Part shown: in pieces, positions 968 through 4,766 of the stretch
Numbering within the stretch: position 1 is the first letter of the stretch
How the letters are laid out: each line of letters starts with the position of its first letter
Source: Comamonadaceae bacterium
GTDB taxonomy: Bacteria > Pseudomonadota > Gammaproteobacteria > Burkholderiales > Burkholderiaceae
Direction of reading: 5' to 3'
Assembly: GCA_947374535.1 (NCBI GenBank)
Contig: CANCCJ010000172.1
Span: 1 to 5,282 of the forward strand
Length of the DNA stretch: 5,282 nt
Translations under genes and position numbers: made by a program
The notes under the pieces: generated by a model
The model's input: only the letters and a program-made list of their open reading frames with translations
Database searches by the model: none
Told to the model about the DNA's origin: nothing

Positions 968-2479
968 ATGACACAAACTCACATTGCGCACTACATCAAC
1001 GGCGCCGTGGCCAATGGCAGCAGCACACGTACACAGCCGGTGTACAACCCCGCCACAGGCGCCGTCACAGGCAACGTCAGTTTGGCCAATGTGAACGACG
1101 TCCATGCCGCCGTCGCCGCTGCGCAAAAAGCATTTCCCGCTTGGGCCGACACACCTCCCCTGCGTCGTGCTCGCGTGATGTTCAAGTTCTTGGAATTGCT
1201 CAACGCCAACAAAGACAAACTGGCGCACATGATCACCGCTGAACACGGCAAGGTGTTCACCGATGCGCAAGGCGAAGTGAGTCGTGGCATTGACATTGTG
1301 GAGTTCGCCACAGGCATTCCCCAGTTGCTCAAGGGTGACTTCACCGAACAAGTCTCCACCGGCATCGATAACTGGACCATGCGCCAGCCCCTCGGCGTGG
1401 TGGCCGGCATCACCCCTTTCAACTTCCCCGTCATGGTGCCCGCTTGGATGTTCCCCGTGGCCATCGCCGCAGGCAACACCTTTGTGCTCAAGCCCAGCCC
1501 GATTGACCCCACCCCCGCGCTTTTCATGGCCGAGTTGCTCAAACAAGCGGGCCTGCCCGACGGCGTGTTCAACGTGGTGCAAGGCGACAAAGAAGCGGTG
1601 GACGCCTTGTTGGTTCACCCCGATGTGAAAGCCGTGAGCTTTGTCGGCTCCACGCCCATCGCCAACTACATCTATGAAACTGGTGCCCACCACGGCAAAC
1701 GTGTGCAAGCCTTGGGCGGTGCAAAAAACCACATGGTGGTCATGCCCGATGCCGACATCGACCAAGCCGTAGACGCCCTCATTGGTGCCGCCTACGGCTC
1801 TGCGGGCGAGCGCTGCATGGCCATCAGCGTGGCCGTGTTGGTGGGTGATGTGGCCGAGCGCCTCATGCCCAAACTGATTGAACGCACCAAAGCCTTGAAG
1901 GTGTTGAACGGTACCAACCTTGCCGCCGAAATGGGCCCCATCGTGACTGACATCGCGCACAAACGCATCACCGGTTACATCGAACAAGGTGTGAAAGAAG
2001 GCGCACGCTTGTTGGTCGATGGCCGCAACTTTGACGGCGCATCTGCTGGCGAAGGCTGCAAAGACGGCTTCTGGATGGGCGGTACCTTATTTGACAACGT
2101 GACGCCTGACATGCGCATTTACAAAGAAGAAATCTTTGGCCCCGTGTTGAGCTGCCTGCGTGTCGCTGACTTGGCACAAGCCGTGGACCTCATCAACGCG
2201 CACGAGTTCGGCAATGGCGTGAGCTGCTTCACCCGCGACGGCAACGTCGCCCGCGAGTTTGCACGCCACATCCAAGTGGGCATGGTCGGCATCAACGTGC
2301 CAATTCCAGTGCCCATGGCATGGCACGGCTTTGGTGGCTGGAAGAAGAGCTTGTTTGGCGACATGCACGCCTACGGCGAAGAGGGTGTGCGCTTCTACAC
2401 CAAGCAAAAGAGCGTCATGCAGCGCTGGCCTGAGAGCATTGGCAAGGGCGCTGAGTTTGTGATGCCGACGTCTAAGTAA
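968..2479 (+). CDS. mmsA: (Methyl)malonate-semialdehyde dehydrogenase, CoA-acylating
   Basis: Soluble enzyme of 503 residues, the usual length for MmsA. The family oxidises methylmalonate semialdehyde to propionyl-CoA, or malonate semialdehyde to acetyl-CoA, using NAD+ and CoA and releasing CO2. Visible ALDH landmarks are TPFNFP with the oxyanion Asn at residue 152, FVGST (225-229) in the NAD fold, the catalytic Cys283 in GERCMAIS, and KEEIFGP (386-392). The block QALGGAKNH (247-255) is diagnostic: hydrolytic ALDHs have a Glu where this protein has Ala248, as expected for CoA-dependent members that do not need the water-activating base. VPIPVP and [11 protein letters not shown] near the C-terminus also fit MmsA. 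The reading frame is open back to 869, but the ATG at 968 is chosen because family similarity starts there and a weak ACGAGA Shine-Dalgarno lies 7 nt upstream; the earlier start would lie inside the operator. The neighbouring GMC dehydrogenase and the lack of mmsB or other valine genes favour malonate semialdehyde as the main substrate, but this is inference. Confidence 0.95.
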
Positions 2480-2524
2480 CTGATTGCGCTCTGTGGGTGG
2501 CGCTGTTGCATGTGCATCGGCAGC

Positions 2525-2590
2525 TTGGGGTGGCATGTTTTGCTCCTCGTCTGCTGCGCATCCGAATGTCGCGGCAACATGCCACCCCAA
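2525..2590. repeat. Palindromic element A: 15-bp perfect stem, 36-nt loop
   Basis: TTGGGGTGGCATGTT (2525-2539) is perfectly complementary to 2576-2590. The 36-nt loop (2540-2575) is the reverse complement of the loop in element B, with one difference (2573). It begins 45 bp after the mmsA stop. No T-tract follows on either strand, so it is not a canonical intrinsic terminator, though it could stabilise the mmsA 3' end. Confidence 0.85.
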
Positions 2591-2673
2591 TCTACCGCTG
2601 CTACACACAAAGGCGCTGCGAGCTCAGAAACGCATGATGTGATGGACCAATGCTGCATAGCAGCGAGGCCCAT
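2591..2673. other. Spacer between palindromic elements, no gene seen
   Basis: This 83-bp stretch completes the 372-bp mmsA-GMC gap together with the two palindromes and the short flanks 2480-2524 and 2778-2851. I find no credible gene or strong promoter. A small perfect hairpin, GCTGC-ATA-GCAGC, lies at 2652-2664. Short open frames on both strands across the gap arise because the repeat core lacks stops and have no plausible start context. Confidence 0.5.
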
Positions 2674-2777
2674 GTTGTCAGAGAAGGGGCGGGCTGGGCG
2701 GTGTGTTGCAGCGACATTCGGATGCGCAGCAGACGAGGAGCAAAACACACTGCCCAGTCCGCCCCTTCTCTGACAAC
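2674..2777. repeat. Palindromic element B: 34-bp stem, same 36-nt loop inverted
   Basis: The left arm 2674-2707 pairs with 2744-2777 over 34 positions: 32 Watson-Crick pairs plus two G-T pairs (2693/2758 and 2700/2751). The outer end is GTTGTCAGAGAAGGGG and its complement. The 36-nt loop (2708-2743) matches that of element A in inverse orientation at 35 of 36 positions. The two stems share only the innermost TGTT/AACA. The common core is therefore 44 bp (2536-2579 and 2704-2747). No T-tract follows. Confidence 0.88.
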
Positions 2778-2851
2778 TGCGACGGCAAACGGACAACCAG
2801 CACAAGCAGCTACCATCCCTGCACACAACAACAAAGAGTTGAGACATCTGC

Positions 2852-4573
2852 ATGAGCGACACCCAGTTTGACTACATCATCGTTGGCGCAGGCACAGCCG
2901 GCTGCTTGCTCGCCAACCGCCTGAGCGCTAACGCCAGCAAACGTGTGTTGCTCATTGAAGCAGGCCGCAAAGACGATTACCACTGGATTCATATCCCTGT
3001 CGGTTACTTGCACTGCATTGGTAACCCCCGCACCGACTGGCTCTACAACACCGCCCCTGATGCAGGCCTGAACGGCCGCAGCTTGCGCTACCCACGCGGC
3101 AAAGTGTTGGGCGGTTGCTCCAGCATCAACGGCATGATTTACATGCGCGGCCAAGCGCGTGACTACGACCAGTGGGCAGACATCACCGGCGACGCCCGCT
3201 GGCGTTGGGACAACGCCCTGCCTTATTTCAAACTCCACGAAGACCATCACGCAGGTGCCAATGCATCGCACGGCGCAAAAGGCCATAAGAGCGATGTGCT
3301 GCTGGCCGACACCACGGTGTATGGCGAAACCTTGCGCCACCACATTGCAGGTGGCGAATGGCGTGTCGAGAAGCAACGCTTGCGCTGGGATGTGCTCGAT
3401 GCCTTCGCACAAGCTGCTGTGCAAGCCGGCATTCCCGCCACCGACGACTTCAACCGTGGCAGCAACGAAGGCGTGGGCTATTTTGAAGTCAACCAAAAAA
3501 GCGGTTGGCGTTGGAACACCGCCAAGGCCTTCATTCGCCCCACCTGCTATGCGCGTCCCAACTTTGAACTGTGGTCCTCCGCGCAAGTGGCCAAGCTGCT
3601 CATGCACACCGAGGCCAACGGCTCGCAACGCTGTACCGGCGTTGAGGTGTGGACAGGCCACGGCTATGTCACGGTGACCGCCAAACAATCGGTGGTGTTG
3701 AGTGCAGGCGCCATTGGTACGCCGCAAATTTTGCAGCTCTCAGGTCTTGGTCCAGCGGACTTGCTGAAGCAACACGGCATTCAACCGGTCATCGATCTGC
3801 CTGGCGTGGGTGCCAACCTGCAAGACCATTTGCAAATCCGCTCAGTCTTCAAAGTGCAAGGCGTAGAGACACTCAACACCTTGGCCAACAGTTGGTGGGG
3901 CAAAGCCAAGATTGGTTTGGAATACGCCTTCAAGCGCAGCGGCCCCATGAGCATGGCACCGTCACAGCTCGGCGCCTTCACCCGCAGCAGCCCTGACCAG
4001 CCTTACCCCAACATCGAATACCACGTACAGCCCCTCAGCCTCGATGCGTTTGGCGAGCCCCTGCACAACTTCCCCGCCTTCACGGCCAGCGTGTGCAACC
4101 TCAACCCCACCAGCCGAGGCACAGTCAACATCACCAGCGCGAACTTCAACGACGCGCCCAAGATTGCCCCCAACTACCTGAGCACCGAAGCCGACCGCCA
4201 AGTGGCTGCCGATTCTTTGCGCGTGACGCGCCGCATCGCCGCGCAACCCGCGCTGGCCAAATACAAACCCGTGGAATACAAGCCCGGCGTGCAATACCAA
4301 ACCGACGAGGACTTGGCCCGCTTGGCCGGCGACATTGCCACCACCATCTTCCATCCGGTGGGCACCGCACGCATGGGCCGCATCGACGACCCCATGGCCG
4401 TGGTGGACCCCGAGTTGCGTGTGCGTGACGGACGCGGCGGTGTGGTGCGCGGCTTGCGTGTGGTGGATGCCAGCGTCATGCCCACCATCACCAGCGGCAA
4501 CACCAACAGCCCGACGCTGATGATGGCCGAGAAGGCCGCGCAATGGCTGGCCCATGAGGCTGTGCAAGCTTGA
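2852..4573 (+). CDS. GMC-family FAD-dependent alcohol dehydrogenase, probable 3-hydroxypropionate dehydrogenase
   Basis: Flavoprotein of 573 residues, normal for the GMC family. The FAD-binding Rossmann motif VGAGTAG (G12, G14, G17) is at the N-terminus, with Glu36 in LLIEAG for the ribose. GMC signature 1 is RYPRGKVLGGCSSINGM, starting at residue 79; signature 2 is GAIGTPQILQLSGLGP (286-301). The catalytic His501 is in FHPVGTARMG, and the partner Asn lies in SGNTNSPT (548-555). There is no signal peptide. The segment around 167-185 (GGEWRVEKQRLRWDVLDAF) precedes the usual DDFN block and marks a bacterial GMC branch that is often labelled choline dehydrogenase automatically. I see no betB, betI or choline transporter here, so that substrate is unlikely. 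Pairing with mmsA and a LysR gene resembles hpdH-mmsA and dddA-dddC, where the GMC enzyme oxidises 3-hydroxypropionate to malonate semialdehyde. The ATG at 2852 is supported by a weak TTGAGA Shine-Dalgarno about 8 nt upstream and by the FAD motif at the expected distance. The family is certain; the substrate is inferred. Confidence 0.93.
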   Translation: MSDTQFDYIIVGAGTAGCLLANRLSANASKRVLLIEAGRKDDYHWIHIPVGYLHCIGNPRTDWLYNTAPDAGLNGRSLRYPRGKVLGGCSSINGMIYMRGQARDYDQWADITGDARWRWDNALPYFKLHEDHHAGANASHGAKGHKSDVLLADTTVYGETLRHHIAGGEWRVEKQRLRWDVLDAFAQAAVQAGIPATDDFNRGSNEGVGYFEVNQKSGWRWNTAKAFIRPTCYARPNFELWSSAQVAKLLMHTEANGSQRCTGVEVWTGHGYVTVTAKQSVVLSAGAIGTPQILQLSGLGPADLLKQHGIQPVIDLPGVGANLQDHLQIRSVFKVQGVETLNTLANSWWGKAKIGLEYAFKRSGPMSMAPSQLGAFTRSSPDQPYPNIEYHVQPLSLDAFGEPLHNFPAFTASVCNLNPTSRGTVNITSANFNDAPKIAPNYLSTEADRQVAADSLRVTRRIAAQPALAKYKPVEYKPGVQYQTDEDLARLAGDIATTIFHPVGTARMGRIDDPMAVVDPELRVRDGRGGVVRGLRVVDASVMPTITSGNTNSPTLMMAEKAAQWLAHEAVQA

Positions 4574-4733: not shown

Positions 4734-4766
4734 AAGGCACCGGTTACCCCCGGTGCCTTTTGCTTT
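4734..4766 (+). terminator. Intrinsic (Rho-independent) terminator
   Basis: AAGGCACCGG (4734-4743) and CCGGTGCCTT (4750-4759) form a perfect 10-bp GC-rich stem with a 6-nt loop, followed by a T-rich tract TTTTGCTTT (4758-4766). The T-tract is on the plus-strand side, so it ends rightward transcription from the mmsA/GMC side or from an RNA in 4577-4733. It lies only 34 bp before the transporter ATG, so it could also be an attenuator for that gene. Confidence 0.87.

What the first reader, a model, noticed from the sequence alone, without database searches (positions are those of the whole stretch)
2525..2777. Two palindromes with a shared 44-bp core and different stems, in opposite orientation
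Elements A and B have the same apical core (TGTT, 36 nt, AACA) at 43 of 44 positions, inverted relative to each other, yet their stems differ in sequence and length (15 versus 34 bp) and are each self-complementary. Ordinary duplication would copy the stem too. A conserved tip on freely varying stems suggests either a small element that inserts at the apex of existing palindromes, or a family of hairpins in which only the tip is recognised (by a nuclease, RNA-binding protein or transposase) and the stem needs only to pair. I know no named repeat family with this design.
Basis: partly seen in the sequence, partly recalled or inferred. Interest (0 to 1): 0.8.

Follow-up and report, generated by a model that had tools for sequence, protein, structure and literature searches.

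The report
Hairpins sharing tips, not stems
The two DNA hairpins belong to a scattered family in freshwater bacteria in which the folded tip is conserved while the stem can have very different sequences so long as its two sides pair, apparently on one particular strand.

Summary
In detail: cores 2536-2579 and 2704-2747 are inverted and match at 43 of 44 positions (best of 200 shuffles 31). The near-exact core occurs only at this gene gap in relatives. Diverged tips on other stems are dispersed: 41 of 84 genus genomes have model hits, up to 20 each, and so do 15 genomes of a 150-genome family sample that are not among those 84. Stem pairs covary strongly (score 0.718 versus 0.159 shuffled). Inside uvrA, where the frame fixes the alignment, the tip is conserved at synonymous sites. 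New here: mismatches in the outer stem of the tip-forward strand are A.C, not G.T (67 versus 5; 43 versus 4 in other genera). Folding thus seems kept on the opposite strand, which is antisense to the abutting gene end in 24 of 27 clusters lying within 110 nt of one. A and B are old copies, repeatedly lost. Best reading: a REP-like element recognised by its folded tip. The recogniser is unknown; the REP-type transposase of these genomes has another palindrome beside it.

The parts
2514..2601 (+). Hairpin A (tip-forward on +): arms 2514-2539 / 2576-2601, 36 nt between; sense to the mmsA-like gene ending at 2479
   Evidence: model R1 match 2523-2592 +, 63.9 bits (A was among the nine sequences the model was built from)
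2536..2579 (+). Conserved tip/core of A (44 nt)
   Evidence: inner 34 nt with up to 3 mismatches found only at this locus in relatives
2674..2777 (-). Hairpin B (tip-forward on -): arms 2674-2707 / 2744-2777
   Evidence: R1 match 2691-2760 -, 64.2 bits (B was also in the model)
2704..2747 (-). Conserved tip/core of B, inverted relative to A
   Evidence: 43 of 44 identical to A
2536..2587 (+). Left half of the 52-nt inverted repeat A/B (partner 2696-2747); includes part of the related inner stems
   Evidence: pair I1, 92%
968..2479 (+). Upstream gene: CoA-acylating methylmalonate-semialdehyde dehydrogenase-type aldehyde dehydrogenase
   Evidence: TIGR01722 682.7 bits, cut-off 448.5; PF00171
2852..4573 (+). 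Downstream gene: GMC oxidoreductase
   Evidence: PF00732 and PF05199

Best explanation
A and B are two copies of a dispersed family of hairpin elements whose conserved unit is a folded tip: two closing GC/GC pairs (invariant in 48 of 48 aligned copies), an internal loop (tip-forward strand about TCMT ... AAWRTC) and a small variable mini-stem capped by a 3-nt loop. Below it lies a stem of about 30 bp that differs between loci. SHOWN: tip conservation, different but paired stems, dispersal, placement just past gene 3' ends, orientation bias, a reversed tip in 2 of 21 uvrA copies, repeated loss, and an excess of A.C over G.T in the outer stem of the tip-forward strand. INFERRED: the selected object is the folded single strand that carries the tip in reverse (5'-GGCGACATTCTGAGCGNAGCGAAGAGGAGCC-3' in the common subtype). 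A protein acting on single-stranded nucleic acid recognises the tip and uses the stem only as a clamp, somewhat as REP transposases use their hairpins. Copies spread this way, then persist, are lost, or change stems. Whether the folded strand acts as ssDNA (mobile element, my preference) or as RNA antisense to the abutting gene end is not decided.
For: Dispersal: 9 copies in 8 of 84 genomes with a diverged-tip pattern, 6 of the 9 outside the mmsA-GMC gap; model hits at E 0.05 or better in 41 of 84 genus genomes and none in 43 (only 59 candidates per genome were scored, and E-values are rough). Covariation: 88.3% of cells paired versus 55.9% shuffled, slid partners 28-46%, 376 double-changed cells versus 119. 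uvrA, 19 gapless rows: third-position entropy 0.128 bits in tip codons, 0.893 in flanking codons, 0.846 in arms (p about 1e-4). Double changes within one stem type: 16 cells versus 4.9 shuffled, maximum 9. L252 versus L258: tip identical, flank 5.6% different, arms 63% different. Strand asymmetry in the 17 outer pairs: A.C 67, G.T 5 of 814 cells; by row 34 to 1 with 13 ties; other genera 43 to 4, rows 19 to 1 with 11 ties; uvrA coding strand, which carries the tip reversed in 19 of 21, shows the opposite, G.T 34 and A.C 11. Orientation: of 43 clusters 28 sense, 7 antisense, 5 neither, 2 inside genes, 1 tie; within 110 nt of a gene end 24 to 3. In-frame copies in uvrA and recG.
Against: No recognising or mobilising enzyme was found; the REP-type transposase has another palindrome beside it. 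No target-site duplication or clear pre-insertion site was seen. Tight, oriented placement at gene 3' ends suits a host RNA function at least as well as mobility. The three tip-proximal pairs (columns 18-20), set aside because the register shifts by one there, go the other way: G.T 17, A.C 2. On A5 two covariation measures do not stand out: pairs with a double change 21 versus 19.2 (20 of 500 shuffles reach it), further pair types 68 versus 67.4. In uvrA the large arm divergence comes from two stem types: within a type arms differ less than the flank (0.14 versus 0.18; 0.15 versus 0.17), one type shows no double change in six rows, and the types do not follow the flank tree. Some stems share ends: GTCAAG at the base in L122, L054, L147 (shifted by one in L099), and TTCGCTCC or TTCGCTTC just before the stem in 5 of 41. 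B in this window does not follow the orientation rule.
Confidence: 0.5

Rival explanations
1. An RNA element: the folded strand is transcribed (by convergent or antisense transcription) and the tip binds an RNA-binding protein or nuclease, stabilising or trimming transcripts before they run antisense into the abutting gene.
For: G.U-type tolerance on one strand; folded strand antisense to the nearest gene end in 24 of 27 clusters; in five pair loci between convergent genes (L117 group, L091/L102, L135, L139, L112) each hairpin has the same orientation relative to its own gene; by eye one hairpin stays nearly identical in six species while intergenic flanks diverge.
Against: 11 of 28 sense clusters show no opposing convergent gene end (some lie at contig ends or beside weakly called genes), A in this window among them. 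Other pairs (L137, L123, L107/L126, this window) do not follow the five-locus pattern. On the folded strand none of 41 stems has four or more T among the next 8 nt. In two uvrA copies the tip is reversed. No Rfam match in 2400-2900 reaches its gathering score.
Confidence: 0.3
2. Passive palindromes: old duplicates kept self-complementary by template-switch correction between arms during replication; the tip is simply the loop left over.
For: Arms covary, and palindromes of another family also occupy the uvrA site.
Against: Does not predict a tip conserved at synonymous sites, nor the A.C versus G.T asymmetry, nor the orientation bias.
Confidence: 0.12
3. Members of the REP/RAYT system proper, mobilised by the REP-associated tyrosine transposase of these genomes.
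For: Y1-transposase family in 63 of 84 genomes, mostly one copy; strand-specific recognition of folded ssDNA hairpins is described for TnpA-REP (PMC8266576, passages); one R1 match of 31.4 bits lies in a RAYT region, L279.
Against: AATTAATTGGGTTCTGACCCCAATTAATT lies beside the gene in 4 of 8 regions inspected; no shared tag or stem in 41 representatives; the transposase is also present in genomes without model hits, such as G407, G408, G410.
Confidence: 0.08

Closest known systems
REP / BIME elements with RAYT (TnpA-REP) transposases
   Same: Small dispersed hairpins, mostly between genes, often paired; strand-specific recognition of the folded single strand in the REP case (PMC3733652 and PMC8266576, passages only).
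   Different: GTAG/CGTC REPs have a 4-nt tag and mostly 6-9 bp stems defined by family; here the stem is about 30 bp and differs by locus, the tip is conserved, and no tag is seen. The RAYT of these genomes lies beside another palindrome.
Rickettsia palindromic elements (RPE)
   Same: Palindromic repeats that also sit in frame inside protein genes (recalled); a passage of PMC3733652 says R. conorii RPEs end with CGTC.
   Different: RPE families conserve the stem sequence (recalled); ours conserves the tip.
Integron attC sites
   Same: Lie just after a gene in fixed orientation, fold on the strand antisense to it, stem variable in sequence (recalled; PMC3053210 seen as search listing only).
   Different: No integron integrase over cut-off in 12 hairpin-rich genomes; the conserved part is the tip, not the base of the stem.
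Widespread AGATTCTTCGCTNCGCTCAGAATGACA repeat (peptide HSERSEE, recalled as common)
   Same: Shares TTCGCTNCGCTCAGAATG with the commonest tip subtype.
   Different: 93 copies from 80 of the 90 viral stretches found have flanks no more complementary than random positions (mean 10.0 versus 10.5 of 25).

Membership tests
REP (repetitive extragenic palindrome) | GTAG or CGTC tag at one end of a conserved short palindrome | tested here: not met
   41 representative stems with 14-nt flanks, read by eye, show no common tag and no common stem, though a few share a base GTCAAG
REP (repetitive extragenic palindrome) | RAYT gene flanked by the same palindrome | tested here: not met
   20 RAYT regions: 3 matches (31.4, 26.9, 23.7 bits; two are one place on both strands). 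Of 8 regions inspected 4 have AATTAATTGGGTTCTGACCCCAATTAATT, 2 have other palindromes, 1 none, and in L274 another gene was examined
Integron attC | Integron integrase in the genome | tested here: not met
   TIGR02249: 0 of 12 genomes over cut-off; weaker matches in all 12 and in all 14 control genomes
Integron attC | Folded strand is antisense to the preceding gene | tested here: met
   Inferred from G.T tolerance on the tip-reverse strand and tip-forward sense in 24 of 27 clusters
Intrinsic terminator | GC-rich hairpin followed at once by a T-run | tested here: not met
   Four or more T among the next 8 nt: 27% on the tip-forward strand, 0% on the folded strand, 41 hairpins
Rfam families | Match at gathering score | tested here: not met
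   Window 2400-2900: all 15 listed matches below gathering, e.g. mir-627 35.9 versus 86
Mobile element | Target-site duplication or clean empty site | tested here: inconclusive
   A-less and tip-less alleles are best read as losses; hairpin-free uvrA linkers exist in more distant relatives

The most novel reading that the evidence does not exclude
A new class of dispersed hairpin element in which recognition lies wholly in a folded single-strand tip and the long stem is free in sequence, built anew or exchanged at each site, used in one orientation at gene 3' ends by an undescribed ssDNA- or RNA-acting protein.
Probability: 0.35. Interest if true: 0.85.

Novelty: new variant of a known kind. 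Interest (0 to 1): 0.7.

Why it matters
The described small palindromic repeats that I compared are defined by a stem or an end tag. Here the rule is reversed, so stem-based repeat searches would miss them. The A.C versus G.T count is a simple way to ask, from sequence alone, which strand of a palindrome is kept folded. If a tip-binding protein exists, this family (10-20 model hits in ten of the 84 genomes; oriented at gene ends; also inside uvrA and recG) makes it findable by pull-down.

Tried and rejected
Apex insertion into existing palindromes: no tip-less palindrome with intact arms among the sites read. Inverted duplication of the target flank as the source of stems (suggested by A's right arm TGCACACGCAA matching the left flank TTGCGTGTGCA): not upheld, since A-less L029 is the sister of A-bearing L033 and hairpin-free uvrA linkers are only a few codons long (15 of 20 fetched stretches readable). 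Extension to the widespread HSERSEE-type repeat: shares the motif but not the stem. A tight pattern outside the genus: 0 of 299 genomes, while the covariance model found 15 further genomes, most with a single hit. Plasmids: three Streptomyces records matching 29 nt at E 0.06, taken as chance; phages: none; viral contigs, exact 27-mer: none. Papers: peptide strings 0 papers; DNA strings 18 papers, 15 listed, none on bacterial repeats by title, none opened; further wording searches (0 papers, 10 of 713 listed, 8 of 12, 8 of 9) listed no title that describes this family.

Rows dropped: of 105 matches, 83 were used; left out were 11 copies from orthologous mmsA-GMC gaps or duplicates of a listed locus, 4 opposite-strand duplicates and 7 weak ones. 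Alignment A5 used 36 of 76 sources; it still holds some orthologues, so rows are not fully independent. Of 30 uvrA loci 29 were read; 21 have the full 171-nt form, 19 entered the entropy test (one search had 18, missing L249). One search used 80 of 90 stretches. A.C/G.T counts use the 17 outer pairs only. Gene calls behind the orientation count are my own codon-usage script, not an annotation; one search was a cruder first try. The first tree caught only 6 rows through a bad search string and was replaced. A2, A5 and A6 are fitted to a model that counts G-U as a pair, so its bias runs against the A.C excess.

Full report
Observation. The window is a Comamonadaceae (Limnohabitans-like) stretch: a LysR regulator, an mmsA-type aldehyde dehydrogenase, a GMC oxidoreductase and a TauE/SafE protein. 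Its GMC gene and hairpin gap are identical to those of one MAG, G001. The gap 2480-2851 holds two hairpins. Their 44-nt cores, 2536-2579 and 2704-2747, are inverted and match at 43 of 44; the best such match in 200 dinucleotide shuffles was 31. Stem A is 15 bp perfect and stem B 34 nt at 94%. The innermost 12 bp of the two stems are still related, and the inverted repeat extends to 52 nt at 92%.

Is the core dispersed? An exact 21-mer scan of genome contigs gave 6 stretches (copies). With up to 3 mismatches the core is found only at this gene gap: five genomes, 8 of 84 genus genomes, 2 of 399 in a family sample. Orthologous gaps read show A plus B, A only, neither, or hairpins with diverged tips (L036, L037, L038). 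A pattern drawn from those tips found 9 copies in 8 of 84 genomes, 6 of the 9 at other loci, on different self-complementary stems. A covariance model from nine copies (A1, R1) gave hits at E 0.05 or better in 41 of 84 genus genomes, up to 20 per genome, and none in 43. E-values are rough and only part of the candidates was scored. Reading 60 fetched regions shows several tip subtypes, for example GGCTCCTCTTCGCTGCGCTCAGAATGTCGC and GGCTCATGCGTCGCTGCGCGCCAAAATCGCC, on many stems. Some loci hold inverted pairs about 100-200 bp apart, usually of one tip subtype (not in L135).

Stem. On 48 chosen matches (A5) 88.3% of cells pair, against 55.9% in shuffles and 28-46% with slid partners; covariation score 0.718 against 0.159; double-changed cells 376 against 119. 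Two of the five measures do not stand out: pairs with a double change 21 against 19.2, further pair types 68 against 67.4. Median stem length is 31 in 41 representatives, range 22-45. A few stems share a base GTCAAG, and 5 of 41 share TTCGCTCC or TTCGCTTC just outside, so not every stem is wholly unrelated.

uvrA as a natural test. In many genomes a copy lies in frame in uvrA between the same codons, so 21 sequences align without gaps. In 19 of them third-codon-position entropy is 0.128 bits in the tip, 0.893 in flanking codons and 0.846 in the arms. The tip is therefore kept as nucleic acid, not only as peptide. Arms differ by 32% on average (maximum 67%), tip by 6%, flank by 18%. That average mixes two stem types. 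Within a type, arms differ by 14-15%, less than the flank (17-18%); double changes exceed all 500 shuffles in one type (16 cells; mean 4.9, maximum 9) and are absent from the other, six rows. L252 and L258 have identical tips, nearly identical flanks and arms 63% different. The types do not follow the uvrA flank tree, so exchange of alleles or repeated insertion is involved. In L248 and L254 the tip is reversed within arms resembling the first type. L260, L264 and L266 lack the tip and each has a tip-bearing sister. Five of 29 copies read have another palindrome, AATTGGGGTCAGA..., at these codons. Hairpin-free relatives have a linker of a few codons. A second in-frame copy lies in recG.

Which strand is folded? 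On the tip-forward strand, mismatches in the 17 outer pairs are A.C or C.A 67 times and G.T or T.G 5 times, spread over most columns; by row 34 to 1 with 13 ties. The three tip-proximal pairs, where the register shifts, go the other way, 2 against 17; I set them aside, and a reader may not. Copies from other genera, not used to find this, give 43 to 4 in the same outer pairs, rows 19 to 1 with 11 ties. In uvrA, where the coding strand carries the tip reversed in 19 of 21, the count turns round: G.T 34, A.C 11, though related rows repeat the same changes. The simplest reading is that folding is selected on the tip-reverse strand, where these are wobble pairs. The data do not separate ssDNA from RNA. 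That strand's apical loop is mostly GCGNAGC, which I recall as an unusually stable DNA mini-hairpin.

Where and how oriented? By my own gene calls, 83 hairpins form 43 clusters: 28 have the tip-forward strand sense to the nearest gene end, 7 antisense, 5 neither, 2 lie inside genes, 1 is tied (p 5e-4). Within 110 nt of a gene end it is 24 to 3 (p 5e-5). The folded strand is thus antisense to the abutting gene. B in this window is an exception. No representative has four or more T in the 8 nt after the folded strand's stem.

History of A and B. In a GMC tree A occurs in a diverged form in L036, outside the 17-row clade that holds the rest. Among A-less species L029 is the sister of A-bearing L033 at 100/100 and L023 lies, less firmly (82/90), among A-bearing species. 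L025, which lacks B, is the sister of B-bearing L028 at 100/100. Both copies are old and repeatedly lost. By eye, one hairpin elsewhere stays nearly identical in six species while intergenic flanks diverge.

Relation to known things. A Y1/REP-type transposase occurs in 63 of 84 genomes, mostly once; a fragment from G004 scores just under the NCBIfam REP transposase cut-off (77.1 versus 80). AATTAATTGGGTTCTGACCCCAATTAATT lies beside it in 4 of 8 regions inspected, and the model finds 3 matches in 20 RAYT regions, the best 31.4 bits. No integron integrase passes cut-off in 12 genomes. Rfam gives nothing above gathering in 2400-2900. A motif-sharing repeat from viral contigs lacks complementary flanks. 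Of papers I saw passages of PMC3733652 and PMC8266576 and search listings otherwise; searches listed no title describing this family.

Verdict. The mechanism I prefer, a REP-like element recognised as a folded single strand by its tip, is an inference. The RNA reading is close behind.

Noticed in passing
uvrA in L261, L262, L263, L265, L267: An unrelated palindrome (AATTGGGGTCAGATCCCAATT type, resembling the one beside the RAYT gene) occupies the same uvrA codons as our hairpin in other species, so this linker looks like a repeated landing place.
   Followed up: partly
L273, L275, L277, L282: REP-type tyrosine transposase with AATTAATTGGGTTCTGACCCCAATTAATT close to it.
   Followed up: partly
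L149-L228 (viral contigs): The motif AGATTCTTCGCTNCGCTCAGAATGACA recurs in many viral contigs without a stem; two searches listed no paper describing it.
   Followed up: partly
G004:C2:477955-478479 (L123): A hairpin pair lies next to a gene that matches the C-terminal part of the integron integrase model below cut-off, perhaps a Xer-type recombinase; similar neighbours in G002 and G005.
   Followed up: no
L131 (G469:C27): An in-frame hairpin copy inside recG; both protein genes found with a copy inside (uvrA, recG) act in DNA repair.
   Followed up: no
L001 and L004 (G001 contigs C170 and C117): The assembly of this genome is broken at hairpin B: one contig ends in it and another begins just before it.
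   Followed up: no
L054, L141, L108, L147: TTCGCTCC or TTCGCTTC just outside the stem, and in some a stem base GTCAAG, recur at several loci; possibly remains of a longer shared element.
   Followed up: no
window 4735-4765: A terminator-like hairpin with T-run (GGCACCGGTTACCCCCGGTGCCTTTT) lies downstream of the GMC gene, unlike hairpins A and B; read by eye.
   Followed up: no
L030 (G455): The mmsA-GMC gap is 1070 bp and appears to hold other genes.
   Followed up: no
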